Positions 13,829-35,953 of a DNA stretch of 64,000 bases are shown piece by piece. The notes below the pieces were generated by a model. It searched no databases and had not been told where the DNA came from. It saw nothing but the letters and a program-made list of their open reading frames with translations. Numbering within the stretch: the stretch's first letter is position 1; each line of letters opens with the position of its first letter. Position numbers and translations under genes: made by a program. Origin of the DNA: an uncultured Alphaproteobacteria bacterium (GTDB taxonomy: Bacteria > Pseudomonadota > Alphaproteobacteria > Bin95); assembly GCA_938083135.1 (NCBI GenBank), contig CALLKY010000035.1:1-64000 (forward strand), given 5' to 3'.

Positions 13829-13871
13829 TCTCTTCTAAGCGCGGTCCTGGTATCGCCGCGCGGATGATAGC

Positions 13872-14164
13872 GGGGGAGTTTCTGTTGCCCGGTACTCCCC
13901 CAAACCGCGCTTACCATAACCTAGCCTAAGCTAGATTACGCAGCGAGTGCGACTTCATTGTCATTCGCACCTAGGTTTTTGATCCGATAACGGCGGAGTC
14001 ACACCGAGCAAAAACTACGTCTTTACCACGCACGTCGAGCCTGGTTCGCCCCCGGAACGCCCAGGATTCATGCGGTTAACATGCCTGGGCGTGGAATTGG
14101 TGGAGGCGCCGGGTACTGCCCCCGGGTCCGTAACGATTATTCCACGCAGCGTTTATCACCATAG
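13872..14164 (-). ncRNA. ssrA: tmRNA, permuted two-piece form (ssrA)
   Basis: tmRNA rescues stalled ribosomes and adds a degradation tag. Read on the minus strand the order is permuted. The acceptor piece comes first, with a T-arm of CCGGG, 7-base loop GGCAGTA and CCCGG, then CGCCTCC-A-CCA ending at 14098. Next is an intervening segment that folds as CGCCCAGG/CCTGGGCG and is presumably cut out. Then comes the coding piece, starting GGGGGCG at 14053, which pairs with CGCCTCC to rebuild the acceptor stem including the G-U wobble that alanyl-tRNA synthetase recognises. The tag frame follows. A hairpin GGGGGAGT/ACTCCCCC (13901-13872) closes the coding piece. The exact processed ends are estimates. 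Confidence 0.95.
13936..13968 (-). other. tmRNA tag reading frame, peptide ANDNEVALAA
   Basis: The resume codon GCG at 13968 follows CCTAGGT and opens ten codons encoding ANDNEVALAA, ended by TAA. With the alanine carried by the tRNA-like part, the full tag is AANDNEVALAA, 11 residues, the same length as in E. coli and ending in the ClpX-recognised LAA. The AND start is universal, and ANDN is usual in alphaproteobacteria. Confidence 0.95.
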
Positions 14165-14181
14165 TCAGGATATCTCCTGAC
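14164..14181. repeat. 7-base inverted repeat between ssrA and thyX
   Basis: GTCAGGA-TATC-TCCTGAC is a perfect dyad located where the ssrA transcript would start and about 100 bases before the thyX ATG. It could be the 5' hairpin of the precursor tmRNA, later removed, or an operator serving either divergent gene. Only symmetry and position are seen. Confidence 0.6.
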
Positions 14182-14187
14182 ACCGCT

Positions 14188-14216
14188 TATATAGGCGCAA
14201 TGCTCACGGATTTAAA
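14188..14216 (-). promoter_or_regulatory. probable ssrA promoter
   Basis: On the minus strand TTTAAA (14216-14211) and TATATA (14193-14188) are separated by 17 bases, a sigma-70-like layout that would start transcription near 14181, just ahead of the acceptor piece. The -35 match is weak. The whole 13829-14279 stretch without a protein gene is accounted for by ssrA, this promoter and the thyX leader. Confidence 0.45.
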
Positions 14217-14279
14217 GTGTGTCTATACTGCCAGCGAAATCGATTCTTTCCTGCTGGGAGTATCGCCGCCGTGGCGAGA

Positions 14280-28488: not shown

Positions 28489-31400
28489 ATGACCGCGACA
28501 ATTTCAACGACCTTTGCGCACCAGCTTATGGGTTTCCGTATTACGGCGGGATTTGGCGAAAATCTGGGTACAGGCATCCGATTTGCCGATGATTTTAACG
28601 GCGACGGCCTGGCGGACATTGTGATGTCCGGGCCGAAGCAGTAAACGACCGACACGGTCGTCCTGTTCGGCAAAAGTACGTTTGGCGCTGGCTCAAATGT
28701 AAGCCTGAATAATCTTGCCGCCGCAGACGGTTTCCGCATTGACCTTAATGGCAACGGCAACGGCAACGGCAACGGCAACAGCAGCAGCGGGCTTGGCGCA
28801 GGCGACGTCAATGGCGATGGCCTGACGGACATTATCCTGACGAATGATGCCAATGGCGATGCGTTCGTGCTGTTTGGTACGTCAGACTTGGCATATAGCG
28901 CCATTGACATGACGTCACTCGACGCCAGCGATGGGTTTGAGGTCCGAGACACGGTGAATATGCCGACCTTTTACGAAGGCAACGCCAATGGGGACTTCAA
29001 TGGCGATGGCTTCAATGATGTCGTCTTCAACGCCAATGACATGTTGTCAAACGCGACGACAGTCGTGTTTGGCGGGGCTGATTTGGGAACCGTCGTTGAA
29101 GCAACGACGTTAGATGGCGCCACCGGCTTTCAGGTGACCGGCGTTGATGGCGGCCAAGCGCAAAGCGACTTCGTTGGTGACTTTAACGGTGACGGGTTCG
29201 ACGACCTGCTGATCTGGGAAGGTGCCACGGATAACGGAGATGGCACTACGGGCGCGGGTGTCGTTGTTTTTGGCGGGCAGACGCTTAATGGCTTCCAGGC
29301 GATCACGGCCTTGGATGAGCCTGGCGTTGGGCTGCGTTTGAAGGCGGCGAACGTGGTGGACTACACGGCTGTCGGCATTGGCGACATCAATGGCGATGGG
29401 CTGGGCGATATATATGTCGGCGCTGCGCCTGACCAGGACGATGGCGGCGGCGTTGTCATCTTTGGCGTGGATGACAGCGGCATTGAGATTGATTTCGCGA
29501 ATTTGGATGGCGCTGATGGCTTCCGCGTCGTGGCACCGGTGGGCGAAAGTCTCAACCTTGGTTCGACGAACAATGTGGCTGCTGCTGGCGACTTCAATGG
29601 CGATGGCTTGGATGACTTCGTCATCGGTGCGCGGGCAGGCGGTAATCCTGATAACGCTGGCCAAGTCTACATTATCTTTGGCTCAACATCGGCATTCGAC
29701 GCGACAATGGATCTGGATGATCTGTCCTTCAATCAAGGGTTCCAGGTCCTCAACGACGGTGGTGGTTTCTTTGGCCAGACCGTGACAGGCGGCGCCGACA
29801 TCAACGGTGATGGCTTCGACGATATAGCCATCGGCGGCGGCGAGAACGCCAATGGCAACGAAGAGCAGACCGTGCTGCTGGGCCAGGATTTCAGCGGGAA
29901 TGCGGTCGTTGGCGGCGATGGGGCGGATACGTTCACGGGTGATGCCTACACCGGCGATCGGTTCTTTGGCGGTCTGGGCGATGACATTTTAATTGGCGCC
30001 GGTGACGCTGATGTTCTCTCTGGCGGTGCCGGCGATGATATTCTGGTTATCAGTGACACTAATTTCGTGCGTGTTGATGGCGGCACAGGTGATGACATCC
30101 TGCGTATTCCGGGGGATTCCGGCGTCACGCTGGACTTCACGCAACCAGGCCACGAGGGCATCCACTCGATCGAAACGATTGATTTGTGTGGCGTCAGCGG
30201 GAACTTCCTGCGCATCCGCCCGGTCGATGTGGCGGGCCTCTCTGAAACGACGAATAAGCTGTTCGTCACCGGTGGTGCTGCTGATGGTGTGACGCTCGTC
30301 GGCGATTCCTTGTTTGGCGATGCCGGGGACGCCCAGACCTTTGCGTTTGACGGCGTTGAAACTGTTGGCGGCGTGACCTTTAACCGGTTCATTTCCGGCG
30401 CGCGGGAGATATCAATCCAGCAGGGCATCGTCATCAGCCGCGAAGTCTCTATTGGCGACTTAGGAGATGAATCCATCCGCTTCCTGGAAGTTGATGGCGA
30501 CTTTGGCGGCAGCCCGGCGACATTAGGCATCGGCACGGCTGGGACGCTTGGCGCGGACTTGAACGGCGACGGTCTGAGTGATGTGTTAGTCGGTGGACCG
30601 GGCCCGGTGAATGGTAGCGGCGTCATATTTGATATTCGGGCCGAAGAATTGCCAGGCTCAGGCGATTTTGATTTGGAAGGCCAAGACAACTTTAGTTTTG
30701 GAAATGGCTCAGGCGACGTAGTGGCATCTGTCGGGGACATCAACGGCGATGGGTTCGATGATTATGTCCAGACCCAACCTAATAATGATTCTAATGCAGG
30801 ATATGCGTCGATCGAGTTCGGGAATGCTGGAACGGGTCGAACGGCCTCCTATGATCCAATCAACGCACAATTGGAGTCCACTGCTCAGCTTGGAAGAGAT
30901 GTAAGCGGCGGCGATTTCAATGGTGATGGGATTGCGGACATGATCATTGGCGCGCCCCGCTTCGATGGCGCGCCAGGCGCGGAGAGCGGCCGCGCCTATG
31001 TACTCTTCGGCCAAGATGTTGCTGCGGGCGATCTTATTATTGACCTTAATGCGTTAGATGGAACGGACGGCCTTTTGCTTGATGGCATTACCGCAGGCAC
31101 GCGCTTCGGCCAAGGCGTGGAAAGCCTGGGTGACATTAATGGCGATGGCCTGGACGATATGGCGATCGCTGCACCGTTTTGAACATTAATGGCTCACAAA
31201 CAGGGTCTGTATTCGTTATCTTCGGGCAAATTGGCGGGATTGGAGCTACGTTTAACGTTAACAGCCTAAACGGCTTTAACGGGTTCAGGATTGATGGGGA
31301 TTCCCAGGTCCTTACGCATCGCCTTTCCAGCGTGCGTGATGCTGGCGATGTCAACAATGACGGCTTCGATGACATCCTGCTTTCCGGTTTTCAGGGCGGA

Positions 31401-32686
31401 AGTCGGCATGTTGTTTTTGGCGATGATAGCTTTGGCGCGTCGCTCACCCTGAATAGCCCCAATGGCTCAAACGGTTTTGAAGTTTCTGGATTTGGAAGCG
31501 GCACAGATCGCGATTCAACCGGCCTCGGTGATTTTAATGGTGACGGGATTGATGACCTACTACTGGGTGACTCCGCAAGGTCCACGAATGGCCTCACCAG
31601 CAATGGGCGTGCGGTTGTTTTCCATGGCAGCAAAGACGCATTTGACGCGAATATCGATTCTAGCGCGCTGAGTGAAGACCAGGGCATCATCATCCATGGT
31701 GATCGCGATAATCTGAACTTTGGCATCGGCGGCCGCCAGGGCGGCGACGTGAATAATGATGGTTTCGCCGATCTGCTCATTGGCGCACCTGGCGGCGGAA
31801 ATGTTGCAGGCGGCGGCGAATCCCACCTGATCTTCGGTGATGGCGATGCACTTTTCCGCGACGGCGCTGCAGGTGAGGCACTGAACGGCGATGGCCAGAA
31901 CAATATCATCCTTGGCGCAGGCGGCGCTGACACGTTGAGAGGCGGCAATGGTGAGGATTCACTGAAGGGCGGTACGGGCGATGATATTCTGATTGGTCAA
32001 GGCGACAATGATATCCTGATCGGTGACGCGGGCGATGACCGATTAAATGGCGGCACCGGCGCAGATATGATGCGTGGCGGTGCGGGTGACGATATCTATA
32101 CTGTTGATAATGTCGGTGACATCGTGCGGGAACGCTTTGGCGAAGGGTTGGACCGGATCAATACAACGGTCGACTTCACCAACCCGGGCAACGTCGAATT
32201 CCTGGTCGTCGCTTCGACCAGTCAAGGCTTGAACCTAACTGGTAGTGTGTTCCGAGATCAAATCTCTGGGGCCAACAAAATCAGCTGATTGATGGCAGGG
32301 GCGGTAATGATTTGATCGTTGGCAAAGTTGGGGATGACACCCTCAACGGTGGTGATGGCAATGACCGGCTTTTTGGCAATTCAGGCAGTGACAGGTTGAA
32401 TGGCGGCCATGGCAACGATGTCATGACCGGCCAGCAGGGCATCGATATCTATGAATTTGATATGGCACCGGGTCGCGATTCCATTACGGACTTCACGACG
32501 GGTGAGGACATTTTGGACGTCAGCGGCTTCTTTGGAGACTTCGGCGATGTTCAGGCGGCAACAGTGGATGTAAACGGCAATGCCCAAATTACATTCGGTC
32601 CAGGCGGCAATTTCCTTACACTGATCGGCGTTACTGAAGCGCAGCTTTCCAGCAGCGACTTCGATTTCGGTCCGCCATCAATGTAG
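28489..32686 (+). pseudogene. decayed FG-GAP/RTX secreted protein gene (about 1,400 codons)
   Basis: One large gene is split by three small lesions. (1) An in-frame TAA at 28642 follows MSGPKQ, and the same frame then continues with matching FG-GAP sequence. (2) Near 31177 the run TTTT ends the frame in TGA, and the protein resumes at 31179 in the -1 frame. (3) Near 32275 the run AAAA does the same, and the protein resumes from 32282. Adding one T or one A to each run restores a continuous protein. The N-terminal two thirds hold many FG-GAP units with calcium-binding D.NGDG.DD loops; the C-terminal part has RTX nonapeptides (GGxGxDxLx) near 29,950-30,090, 31,920-32,110 and 32,330-32,440, typical of type I-secreted proteins. 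The start ATG follows GGGGAG. No secretion genes are adjacent. Confidence 0.8.
28750..28779 (+). repeat. five tandem GGCAAC hexamers
   Basis: Five perfect copies of the hexamer encode a Gly-Asn run within the FG-GAP pseudogene, followed by AGC repeats encoding Ser. The unit is a multiple of three, so slippage would change length but not frame. Confidence 0.9.
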
Positions 32687-32707: not shown

Positions 32708-33868
32708 CTAATCCAGTGTCTCCAACAACCGCATAATCAATTGCGTGCGCGGCTTGATGGAGGCGATGAGGAGGCGTTCTTCCTCGGTGTGGGCACCGTC
32801 TCCGTCCACGCCGAGGCCGTCAAGCGTTGGGATGCCGAGGGCGGCGGTAAAGTTGCCGTCGCTGAACCCGCCGGTTGCGGTATCGTCCAGGCTCTCCATG
32901 CCGATTTCCAGTGCTAAGGCTTCTGCCTGTTCGTGCAGAGCTGCGATGGCATCTGTCTTCGGGTAAGGCGGGCGATTGAGGCCGCCTTCGATCTCCAGCC
33001 GCACCTCGGGATCAACGGGGGACAGGCTGTCCATGAAGGCGCAGGTTGCTTCGGCAGAGGCATCATCTGGAAGTCGAATATCGACCTCAACCTCTGCCAG
33101 GGCAGGGCGGACATTGGCACCGCTGCCGCCCGTCCATAGGCCGACATTGGCGGTGACGCCGGTCTCATAATCCGTCAACACTTCGATCTTTGCGATCTGG
33201 CGGGCGGATTCAAGGATGGCGCTCACACCATCCTGGTGGCGCATGCCTGCATGGCTCGGGCGGCCGTGGGCGCGGATAACATAGCGGGCGCAGCCTTTCC
33301 TTGCCGTCACAACCTTATTGCCGTCCCGCCCTGGCTCCAGCACCAGCACGTATTTGTTGGCTTGGCCCAATTCCTCAATCAAGTCGCGGCTGGTGGGGCT
33401 ACCAACTTCTTCATCTGGCGTGAACAGGAACGTGACGGGCAACGGCGTTTCCCGCCCCGCCCGCACGAACTGGCGCAAAGCGGCCACGCCAAGGCAGGCG
33501 CCGCCCTTCATGTCATAGACACCGGGGCCGTAGAGGTAGCCATCGCGCTCTTCCAGCTTCAATGCCTCATCAATCGTGCCATGGGGATGCACCGTATCCA
33601 GATGCGCCATGATCAAGATGCCAGGGCCATCGCCGCCCCAAGGGGAGCGGGCAATCACGCAATCACCAAACCCGTCACGCCCTGGACGGCGCGTGATCTC
33701 CATGCCCAGCGTCTCCATGGCGCTCTCCGCCACATCGACAACCCTGTTGACGGCAATGCCATCCTTTGACGGTGATTCAATGCCGGCCCATTCCTTGATG
33801 TCAGCCAGAATTTCAGCTTCATCGACCTCTGGGATATTCGCTTGTGGGGTGGTGTTGGGCGCGCTCAT
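32708..33868 (-). CDS. M20-family metallopeptidase, second of a tandem pair
   Basis: A 386-residue zinc peptidase of the M20/ArgE/CPG2 family, which removes a C-terminal residue or acyl group from small amide substrates in the cytoplasm. Metal-site residues are visible: H89 and D91 (AHLDTVHP), the bridging D119 (GVYDMKGG), and the catalytic pair E153-E154 (PDEEVGS). The gene overlaps the stop of the preceding paralogue by four bases (ATGA). It is nearer to glutamate carboxypeptidase than to acetylornithine deacetylase. Substrate unknown. Confidence 0.93.
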   Translation of the reverse strand: MSAPNTTPQANIPEVDEAEILADIKEWAGIESPSKDGIAVNRVVDVAESAMETLGMEITRRPGRDGFGDCVIARSPWGGDGPGILIMAHLDTVHPHGTIDEALKLEERDGYLYGPGVYDMKGGACLGVAALRQFVRAGRETPLPVTFLFTPDEEVGSPTSRDLIEELGQANKYVLVLEPGRDGNKVVTARKGCARYVIRAHGRPSHAGMRHQDGVSAILESARQIAKIEVLTDYETGVTANVGLWTGGSGANVRPALAEVEVDIRLPDDASAEATCAFMDSLSPVDPEVRLEIEGGLNRPPYPKTDAIAALHEQAEALALEIGMESLDDTATGGFSDGNFTAALGIPTLDGLGVDGDGAHTEEERLLIASIKPRTQLIMRLLETLD

Positions 33869-35058
33869 GGGGCGTCCTCCGAATTGGCACCATCCAGGGT
33901 CTGAACGGTCTCCGGTGTTATCGTCTCAATCAAGCTGGCAAGAAGGGCGCACCGCGGGGCGATTGATGACACAAGTAAATGCTCATCCAGCGTGTGGGCA
34001 CCAGCGCCATCGACACCAAGACCGTCGAGTGTGGGAACGCCTAAAGCTGCGGTGAAATTGCCGTCACTGCCGCCGCCGGTTTGCGGCACGGTTTCAAGGT
34101 CAATGCCAATCTGTCCAGCAAGCCCATGCGCATGATCGAATAGGGCGGAGACGCCAGCAGTGCGCTCCATTGGCGGGCGGTTGAGACCACCCTTGATCTC
34201 CAGTGTGACGCCAGGGATTTCAGCCTTCAGGGCCTGCATTCGCGCATCAATCTCAGCCGCAAGCTCAAGGGTAGGGATGCGAATATCAATTTCAGCCGTC
34301 GCCCGTGATGGTATAACGTTAACCGCAGTGCCAGCTTCAATGACACCAACGTTTACCGTGACGCCCTTGCCATAGTCTGTCATCGCTTCCAGGCCGACAG
34401 TCTTGGCAGCGATCTCTCGGATAGCGCTGGCACCATCCTGATGGCGGGAGCCTGAATGGGCTGGTTTGCCTGTCGCTGTAAGGTAGTAGCGGGCTGCGCC
34501 CTTGCGTGCGGTAACAATCTTGCCGCCTTCGCGGGCAGGCTCGACGACGAGGGTTACAGCGGCGCGGCGGGCCTCTGCCTCAATGGCGTCTTTGCTGGTA
34601 GGGCTTCCGGCTTCTTCATCGGGCATGACCATAATCGTGACGGGCATGGCAGGGCCACTACCGAGCGCCTTGAGCGTCTTAATCGCCTGCAGTGCTAAAT
34701 ATGCCCCGCCTTTCATGTCATAGATGCCGGGGCCGTAAAGTTTGTCCCCATCCCGCTTGAACGGCAGTGTCTCCAACGTGCCAATCGCATGGACCGTATC
34801 GGCATGGGTGAGCATGAGGAGACGAGGGCCATTGGCGGCGGGCTGCGTTTCCAGCTTCACAATATCGCCATAGCCATCGCGGCCAGGTGTGCGGCTGACT
34901 GTGAGGCCAACGGATTCCGCTTCCTGAATAACCAAGTCCATCATGGCGTTGACGGCGTCTGCGTCTGGGCTAGGGCTTTCTTGCTCTACCCAAACCTTCA
35001 GGGTTTCAATGATCGCGTCCGTATCCATAGCAGCTAGCAGGCGGGCAGGGTCCGTCAC
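33865..35058 (-). CDS. M20-family metallopeptidase, first of a tandem pair
   Basis: A 397-residue paralogue of the next gene, with the same metal motifs (LTHADTVHAIG, GIYDMKGG, PDEEAGSPTS). The chosen start is a GTG at 35058 with GGAG 8 bases upstream; an ATG 30 bases later is possible, while the upstream open frame looks non-coding. The pair probably arose by duplication and is translationally coupled, suggesting either two related specificities or a heterodimer. There is no adjacent peptide transporter. Confidence 0.92.
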   Translation of the reverse strand: MTDPARLLAAMDTDAIIETLKVWVEQESPSPDADAVNAMMDLVIQEAESVGLTVSRTPGRDGYGDIVKLETQPAANGPRLLMLTHADTVHAIGTLETLPFKRDGDKLYGPGIYDMKGGAYLALQAIKTLKALGSGPAMPVTIMVMPDEEAGSPTSKDAIEAEARRAAVTLVVEPAREGGKIVTARKGAARYYLTATGKPAHSGSRHQDGASAIREIAAKTVGLEAMTDYGKGVTVNVGVIEAGTAVNVIPSRATAEIDIRIPTLELAAEIDARMQALKAEIPGVTLEIKGGLNRPPMERTAGVSALFDHAHGLAGQIGIDLETVPQTGGGSDGNFTAALGVPTLDGLGVDGAGAHTLDEHLLVSSIAPRCALLASLIETITPETVQTLDGANSEDAP

Positions 35059-35151
35059 GTTGGTGCTCCAAGGCGAATGGTCATGGTGATTCCTACAACG
35101 GCTGCCGCGTGGCTGACCATCCCTTGATATGTGGACCACTTGTGTTCAGCC

Positions 35152-35182
35152 CTTGAAGTCTAAGTGCGGGATCACCACATCT
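35152..35182 (+). promoter_or_regulatory. sigma-32 (RpoH) heat-shock promoter
   Basis: CTTGAA (35152-35157) and CCACATCT (35175-35182) are separated by 17 bases; they match the RpoH consensus CTTGAA / CCCCATNT at all but one position. It lies upstream of a small heat-shock gene and would start a leader of about 90 bases, consistent with heat induction. Confidence 0.75.
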
Positions 35183-35253
35183 TGTAGGCTGGGCCTGAGG
35201 GCCAGTGAGGGCGTGATCGCCAAGTGTTGGGATCGGTGCTCTGTCGTTTGAAA

Positions 35254-35278
35254 CGCGTTCGCTTGAAGGAGGTGCGCG
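35254..35278 (+). promoter_or_regulatory. ROSE-like RNA thermometer hairpin at hsp20 start
   Basis: The bases just before the ATG can fold as a hairpin with outer pairs CGCG/CGCG, a U-U mismatch, and the anti-Shine-Dalgarno segment UCGCU (35259-35263) facing AAGGAGG (35266-35272). UCGCU fits the ROSE signature U-Y-G-C-U, in which the G is bulged or forms a G-G pair so that the helix melts on warming. Position and motif agree with ROSE elements known upstream of alphaproteobacterial hsp20 genes. The fold was drawn by hand, without energy calculation. Confidence 0.6.
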
Positions 35279-35692
35279 ATGCCAAGAATGGCAGCTTTTA
35301 ATAGCCCGCTCATGCTGGGTTTTGATCATCTGGAACACCTTGTCGAGAGCGTCGCGAAAGCCTCATCCGAAGGCTATCCACCTTATAACATTGAACAAAC
35401 TGGTCCTGAGGGCTTGCGTATTACGTTGGCTGTCGCAGGCTTTCGTCGTGAAGACATGGATATCCAGGTTGAGGATAATCAATTGATTGTCCGTGGTGTC
35501 CAGCCGGAAGATGATGGCGACAAGGTATTCCTGCATCGGGGCATTGCTGGTCGACAATTCCAGCGCCGGTTCGTGCTGGCAGAAGGGATCGAGGTTGGGT
35601 CTGCCACCATCGAAAATGGCCTACTGCACATTGATCTGCGCCGTCCGAAACCCGAAAGCCGGGTTCGCACAATCGATATCCAGGGCGGTTGA
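35279..35692 (+). CDS. small heat-shock protein Hsp20
   Basis: A 137-residue alpha-crystallin-type chaperone that holds unfolding proteins under heat stress. The alpha-crystallin domain covers about residues 35-130, with the strands LRITLAVAGFRREDMDIQVEDNQL shortened here to its recognisable core AGFRREDMD, and the closing ENGLLHIDL motif. The C-terminal tail is short and lacks an obvious I-x-I motif apart from TIDI. AAGGAGG precedes the ATG. The promoter and leader suggest dual heat control. DUF1150 follows 30 bases later, the usual alphaproteobacterial arrangement. Confidence 0.95.
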   Translation: MPRMAAFNSPLMLGFDHLEHLVESVAKASSEGYPPYNIEQTGPEGLRITLAVAGFRREDMDIQVEDNQLIVRGVQPEDDGDKVFLHRGIAGRQFQRRFVLAEGIEVGSATIENGLLHIDLRRPKPESRVRTIDIQGG

Positions 35693-35722: not shown

Positions 35723-35953
35723 ATGACGAAGCATCAGACTGAAGTTGAAATGACCGAAATGGCCGCAAACCAAGTTGACCTTGAGTCGCTTGGACTGTCA
35801 GAGGTCGCGTATTTAAAGGCTGCTATTGTGGATGAAATGCCAGGGTTCGCAATCTTTGCAGCAAATGGTGTCGCAATCGGGTTTGCGCCTGAGCGGAATC
35901 AGGCCATTGCTGCAATTATGTCCAATGAAATGGCGCTTGCAGCGGTTCACTAA
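35723..35953 (+). CDS. DUF1150 family protein
   Basis: A 76-residue protein of a family found almost only in alphaproteobacteria and typically next to hsp20. It is recognised by the segment PGFAIFAANGVAIGFAPER. The function is unknown; the fixed neighbourhood suggests a role with the small heat-shock protein. It probably shares its transcript. The N-terminus is uncertain: a second ATG lies 27 bases downstream. Confidence 0.9.
   Translation: MTKHQTEVEMTEMAANQVDLESLGLSEVAYLKAAIVDEMPGFAIFAANGVAIGFAPERNQAIAAIMSNEMALAAVH

What the first reader, a model, noticed from the sequence alone, without database searches (positions are those of the whole stretch)
35152..35278. Dual heat control of hsp20: RpoH promoter plus ROSE-like thermometer
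CTTGAA-N17-CCACATCT nearly matches the sigma-32 consensus, and the predicted leader of about 90 bases ends in a hairpin where UCGCU faces the AAGGAGG ribosome-binding site with an extra G and a U-U mismatch, the hallmark of ROSE elements. ROSE is best known from Rhizobiales; this lineage looks different. The hairpin was drawn by hand.
Basis: partly seen in the sequence, partly recalled or inferred. Interest (0 to 1): 0.6.

Follow-up and report, generated by a model that had tools for sequence, protein, structure and literature searches.

The report
ROSE-type heat-sensing leader of hsp20
A small heat-shock gene in an uncultured alphaproteobacterium carries both a heat-shock promoter and a conserved RNA hairpin that should hide its ribosome-binding site until it gets hot; this is a well-known control, found here in a lineage where the standard RNA database search misses it.

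Summary
UYGCU lies upstream of the SD in 90 of 108 orthologous hsp20 leaders, against 12 of 364 SD-ATG sites elsewhere. In the genus the 3' hairpin is nearly the only conserved part of the leader. The genome's second hsp20 gene has the same kind of hairpin with a different lower stem, and all 23 second-paralogue leaders read have UYGCU. Compensatory changes in relatives support the fold. A covariance model built only from second-paralogue leaders outside this family places the window hairpin in register with the bulged G, but weakly (11.2 bits, E 0.8 in 64 kb). Rfam ROSE models do not reach the window, although orthologues match ROSE_3 below threshold. Folding alone shows little temperature response and does not set this gene apart. 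Verdict: a real ROSE-type, probably RpoH-transcribed hsp20 leader; a new, divergent member of a known kind.

The parts
35152..35157 (+). -35 element CTTGAA of a sigma-32 (RpoH) type promoter
   Evidence: Sequence. Full pattern occurs 5 times in 4.15 Mb, 0 in control. A promoter-like match lies at the same distance in L002 and L003, and 15 nt closer in L004; in L005 the best match is weak.
35175..35182 (+). -10 element CCACATCT, 17-nt spacing
   Evidence: Sequence. Matches of at least 10 of 13 positions in 21% of orthologous upstream regions against 2% of random stretches.
35189..35278 (+). 5' untranslated leader, about 90 nt (start site inferred from promoter spacing)
   Evidence: Inference from promoter position; no transcription-start data.
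35189..35205 (+). leader hairpin I, CUGGGCC-UGA-GGGCCAG
   Evidence: Predicted in the folds ending at 35278 and 35290; counterpart GUUGGGCUGAUAGGGCCAAC in L003 folds likewise.
35207..35241 (+). leader hairpin II with bulged G35219 (UGAUC(G)CCAA...UUGGGAUCG), resembling the Y(G)CC...GGR hairpin of alphaproteobacterial hsp20 leaders
   Evidence: Fold of 35190-35278. Family hairpin has strong covariation, but the model matches the window copy only weakly (3.3 bits).
35254..35278 (+). SD-sequestering ROSE-type hairpin CGCGUUCGCUUGAAGGAGGUGCGCG
   Evidence: fold; genus conservation; model R2.
35259..35263 (+). ROSE motif UCGCU; G35261 is the bulged G
   Evidence: Motif in 91 of 107 distinct orthologous leaders and in all 23 second-paralogue leaders read.
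35266..35272 (+). Shine-Dalgarno sequence AAGGAGG, of which GAGG (35269-35272) is paired
35279..35692 (+). hsp20 / small heat-shock protein gene, 137 aa
   Evidence: Pfam HSP20; IbpA-like in NCBIfam below its cut-off.
35723..35953 (+). DUF1150 gene directly downstream (possible co-transcription)
   Evidence: Pfam DUF1150, 30 bits.

Best explanation
The hsp20 gene is under two layers of heat control. RpoH (sigma-32) starts transcription near 35189 after heat shock [inferred from sequence]. At growth temperature the leader folds so that UCGCU pairs with GAGG of the SD around a bulged G35261 and a U-U mismatch, closed below by a CGCG/CGCG stem [fold predicted; hairpin supported by comparison]. 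Heating loosens this imperfect helix, the 30S subunit binds and Hsp20 is made [inferred from tested ROSE elements]. By sequence and architecture it is a ROSE-type thermometer of the alphaproteobacterial hsp20 group that comes closest to Rfam ROSE_3, with a diverged loop and register. The second hsp20 of the genome is built the same way.
For: Exact elements. Hairpin is the MFE fold of its 25-mer; removing G35261 stabilises it by about 4 kcal/mol. UYGCU in 90/108 hsp20 leaders versus 12/364 other SD-ATG sites. In the genus alignment the 3' hairpin is nearly the only conserved part of the leader. Second hsp20 of the same genome has a CTTGAA-type promoter plus ACAUC(G)CUUCCAAGGAGGAUGU; all 23 second-paralogue leaders read have UYGCU, and the motif pairs are kept in all 19 left after removing near-duplicates. 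Compensatory changes in two hairpin alignments that exclude the family. Model R2, built from second-paralogue leaders outside the family, returns 35252-35280 with the bulged G in register: one of two matches at E<=10 in 64 kb, E 0.0018 in the leader alone. RF00435 matches whose downstream gene could be read sit on second-paralogue hsp20 leaders; orthologues match RF02523 ROSE_3 below threshold exactly in the leader. Promoter pattern rare in genome and enriched ahead of orthologues. ROSE mechanism and bulged-G effect shown elsewhere (PMC3669281, PMC11342760).
Against: No Rfam ROSE match in the window even at E<=10, nor in the genome. Model R1 from first-paralogue hairpins with a 6-nt loop misses the window leader. 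The R2 hit is weak (11.2 bits, E 0.8 in the window, second to an unrelated site). Computed SD accessibility at 25 C is no lower than that of many window genes and rises little to 42 C. Fold depends on the 3' end chosen. Some orthologues, including G006 of the same family, lack UYGCU. Few genomes of the genus are available, so covariation within the genus itself is minimal.
Confidence: 0.83

Rival explanations
1. Only the RpoH promoter regulates the gene; UCGCU ahead of the SD is a leftover or chance and the leader is not a thermometer.
For: Weak predicted temperature response and ordinary SD accessibility; a minority of orthologues lost UYGCU; no Rfam match.
Against: 90/108 versus 12/364, near-exclusive conservation of the hairpin in the genus, second paralogue with the same design, compensatory changes in relatives.
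Confidence: 0.1
2. The leader is thermosensing but through a different fold: 35230-35243 pairs with the SD and start codon, and the UCGCU hairpin is secondary.
For: This fold is the minimum for fragments ending at 35290.
Against: When the fragment ends at 35278 or 35310 the UCGCU hairpin wins. The upstream strand of the alternative is largely not conserved in L004 and L005, whereas the UCGCU hairpin is.
Confidence: 0.07
3. The conserved motif is a binding site for a protein or small RNA rather than a thermometer.
For: Conserved UYGCU and bulged Gs in the upstream hairpins would also fit a binding site.
Against: Conserved letters are those that pair with the SD; flanks vary but keep pairing; the same motif is a thermometer in tested ROSE elements, with temperature-dependent ribosome binding in vitro (PMC3669281).
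Confidence: 0.04

Closest known systems
Rfam RF02523 ROSE_3
   Same: Closest described family: leaders of orthologous hsp20 genes (L071 31.0 bits, L092 28.6, L097 25.9) match it across the whole leader, ending close to the start codon.
   Different: Window leader gives no match even at E<=10; its loop, stem and upstream hairpins have diverged.
Rfam RF00435 ROSE (Bradyrhizobium hspA type)
   Same: UYGCU, bulged G, SD pairing and hsp20 context; the RF00435 matches in the class whose gene could be read lie on second-paralogue leaders, and the genome's second hsp20 is of that paralogue.
   Different: Window gene is the other paralogue; it has CGCG/CGCG instead of the CAU/AUG-type lower stem and U-U where that group has U-A.
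Short ROSE-like thermometer of Pseudomonas ibpA (PMC3669281)
   Same: Sigma-32 promoter plus U(U/C)GCU hairpin flanked by G-C pairs, with a GC-rich 5' hairpin; leader of 61-62 nt.
   Different: Window leader is longer and by prediction has two upstream hairpins.
ROSE-like oppF thermometer of Providencia (PMC11342760)
   Same: U-G wobble next to the motif and bulged G; deletion of the G reduced heat induction there.
   Different: Different gene and taxon; experimentally tested, unlike this one.

Membership tests
ROSE-type RNA thermometer | 5' leader of a small heat-shock gene, covering its SD | tested here: met
   HSP20 ORF at 35279, element ends at 35278.
ROSE-type RNA thermometer | U(U/C)GCU opposite the SD | tested here: met
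   UCGCU 35259-35263 pairs with 35269-35272 in the fold.
ROSE-type RNA thermometer | Bulged G in the anti-SD strand plus non-canonical pairs | tested here: met
   G35261 unpaired, U35259-U35273 mismatch, U-G pairs. By prediction only.
ROSE-type RNA thermometer | Hairpin conserved with compensatory changes | tested here: met
   In related leaders; within the window's own genus there is too little variation.
ROSE-type RNA thermometer | Two to four hairpins in the leader | tested here: inconclusive
   Three predicted at 35189-35205, 35207-35241, 35254-35278, but the fold varies with the fragment, and hairpin II only weakly matches the family hairpin.
ROSE-type RNA thermometer | Match to an Rfam ROSE covariance model (a detection test, not a defining property) | tested here: inconclusive
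   No match; but the models are insensitive here: RF00435 passes its cut-off in 1 of 289 class genomes, RF02523 in 0, although most orthologous leaders have the motif.
ROSE-type RNA thermometer | Temperature-dependent melting and translation | not testable with these tools
   Folding shows only modest change; needs reporter and probing experiments.
RpoH (sigma-32) promoter | CTTGAA and CCNCATNT-like elements 16-18 nt apart | tested here: met
   RpoH dependence itself is not testable here.

The most novel reading that the evidence does not exclude
Alphaproteobacterial hsp20 leaders share a modular upstream hairpin, stem-Y(G)CC-loop-GGR-stem with its own bulged G, present once or twice ahead of the ROSE hairpin, and the same module is used ahead of clpB, so that it is a common heat-shock leader element beyond ROSE.
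Probability: 0.12. Interest if true: 0.5.

Novelty: new member of a known kind. Interest (0 to 1): 0.3.

Why it matters
It shows that Rfam's ROSE models miss most ROSE-type leaders of alphaproteobacterial hsp20 genes, that both hsp20 paralogues of this lineage carry the element, and that the anti-SD motif can use either of two registers on a repeated AGGAGGA. This gives a better rule for finding such thermometers (UYGCU plus gene context), not a new principle.

Tried and rejected
Rfam search of window, genome and class: insensitive. Model R1 with a fixed 6-nt loop: does not reach the window, whose hairpin folds best in the other register. Thermodynamic contrast with other genes: uninformative. 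MAFFT alignment of whole leaders did not line up the SD, so length-matched subsets and an anchored count were used instead. Model R3 of the upstream hairpin: beyond hsp20 the genome-wide hits looked at had no convincing gene context and look like chance in GC-rich DNA. Of the other four promoter-pattern sites in the genome, two were checked for genes: one lies ahead of a small ORF that I read by eye as DUF2852-like, one inside a gene start that looks like aspartate carbamoyltransferase and is probably chance.

Full report
Observation. CTTGAA is at 35152-35157 and CCACATCT at 35175-35182, spaced by 17 nt. UCGCU is at 35259-35263, AAGGAGG at 35266-35272 and ATG at 35279. The ORF 35279-35692 is an Hsp20 protein, followed by a DUF1150 gene. 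The genome is an alphaproteobacterium (alpha tmRNA in the window). The closest titled record is an uncultured alphaproteobacterial MAG with 96% identical Hsp20; the other near matches are mostly labelled Rhodospirillales, Rhodospirillaceae or Acetobacteraceae.

Promoter. CTTGAA-N16-18-CCNCATNT occurs five times in the 4.15-Mb genome and not at all in the reversed control. A promoter-like match lies at the same distance in L002 and L003 and 15 nt closer in L004; L005 has only a weak best match. Across 107 orthologous upstream regions a score of at least 10 of 13 is reached by 21%, against 2% of random stretches. The genome's second hsp20 has CTTGAAA followed at suitable distance by CCTATTTC. 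RpoH use is therefore likely but inferred.

Hairpin. In longer fragments the result depends on the 3' end: with 35290 a competing fold using 35230-35243 covers SD and AUG, with 35278 or 35310 the UCGCU hairpin returns. SD accessibility is not lower than at many other genes of the window and changes little with temperature, so folding alone would not have proved the case.

Comparative evidence. UYGCU is present in 91 of 107 distinct leaders of the same hsp20 paralogue; counted strictly upstream of the SD it is 90 of 108, against 12 of 364 SD-ATG sites elsewhere in the same loci. In the genus (L001 to L005, where L002 is a near-duplicate of L001) the hairpin and start codon are conserved while the rest of the leader is largely not. 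The second hsp20 of this genome, whose leader also came up in a blind pattern search, has ACAUC(G)CUUCCAAGGAGGAUGU. All 23 second-paralogue leaders read (20 genomes plus three) carry UYGCU. In the 19 left after dropping near-duplicates every motif pair is kept, Y2 pairs as C-G 10, U-G 6, U-A 3, and the stem pairs at -3 and -4 exceed shuffles.

Covariation. Fifteen first-paralogue hairpins with a 6-nt loop, none from this family: 98.9% of cells paired, against 58 to 71% when slid, with changes on both sides at the two flanking pairs. Nine second-paralogue hairpins with the same 5-nt spacing as the window, none from this family: 97.5% paired, four pairs changed on both sides, 0 of 500 shuffles as high. 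These alignments were chosen by motif, so the motif pairs themselves are partly selected; the flanking pairs are not. Related sequences can exceed shuffles without structure, so the slid control is the better guide.

Transfer test. Model R2 from those nine sequences, which contain neither this paralogue nor this family, gives two matches at E<=10 in the 64-kb window; the second is 35252-35280, 11.2 bits, E 0.8, aligned with the bulged G in place, and it is the best match in the leader at E 0.0018. This is a weak hit and is offered as consistency of register, not as proof. In the whole genome R2 also finds the second hsp20 leader, at 15.6 bits and rank 4. Model R1, from first-paralogue hairpins in the other register, does not find the window leader.

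Known families. No Rfam ROSE family reaches the window leader. RF00435 rings in 7 of 289 class genomes, once above its cut-off; the five loci whose downstream gene could be read are second-paralogue hsp20 leaders. RF02523 ROSE_3 matches leaders of first-paralogue orthologues below threshold: L071 31.0 bits, L092 28.6, L097 25.9, all over the leader. The literature gives U(U/C)GCU opposite the SD with a bulged G as the hallmark, and sigma-32 plus ROSE control was shown for Pseudomonas putida ibpA (PMC3669281); bulged-G deletion lowered induction in a ROSE-like oppF element (PMC11342760). Rfam ROSE was annotated ahead of Gluconobacter oxydans hsp20 (PMC5756330), and over 40 alpha- and gamma-proteobacterial candidates were reported earlier (cited in PMC4166951). 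So the kind is known and its presence outside Rhizobiales is expected.

Upstream hairpins. First-paralogue leaders often contain a hairpin of the form stem-Y(G)CC-loop-GGR-stem; 19 examples with a 5-nt loop are fully paired with many compensatory changes (four of the stem pairs were used in selection, the outermost pair was not and is kept in 19 of 19 with six pair types). The window has a similar but diverged hairpin at 35207-35241 with bulged G35219, which the model scores at only 3.3 bits. Two ROSE_3 matches lie ahead of genes that read as ClpB by eye, a lead not followed.

Mechanism and status. Shown: the sequences, their rarity, their conservation, and covariation in relatives. Inferred: transcription start, RpoH dependence, melting on heating, and rise of translation. 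I rate dual control by RpoH and a ROSE-type thermometer at 0.83. It is a new, divergent member of a known kind.

Noticed in passing
L150 and L151, about position 1495-1590 (L150 read as reverse complement): The two best ROSE_3 (RF02523) matches in the class lie ahead of genes that read as ClpB by eye, with a GGAYGCCG...CGGGUCC hairpin but no clear UYGCU opposite the SD.
   Followed up: partly
L173 (G000 contig C5, about 164064-164094): A glyoxalase-family gene of the same genome (Pfam Glyoxalase) has a UUGCUUCAAGGAGAAUGCGC hairpin over its SD and is hit by model R2 (18.9 bits); no good sigma-32 promoter ahead of it. Could be chance.
   Followed up: partly
L118 166-275, minus strand (also in L119 and L120): TPP riboswitch divergent from the second hsp20, on the opposite strand.
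   Followed up: no
window 13871-14220, minus strand: Alphaproteobacterial tmRNA, permuted type.
   Followed up: no
window 28867-32686, plus strand: Three consecutive ORFs (771, 369, 124 aa) rich in FG-GAP-like and calcium-binding-like repeats in successive frames (by eye); possibly one gene split by frame changes.
   Followed up: no
window 32708-35139, minus strand: Two adjacent peptidase-like genes divergent from hsp20; the nearer one is Peptidase_M20, the other looks alike by eye.
   Followed up: no
L035, L036, L037, L041, L053, L063, L070, L109 upstream of hsp20: These leaders appear to hold two Y(G)CC...GGR hairpins in tandem ahead of the ROSE hairpin.
   Followed up: partly
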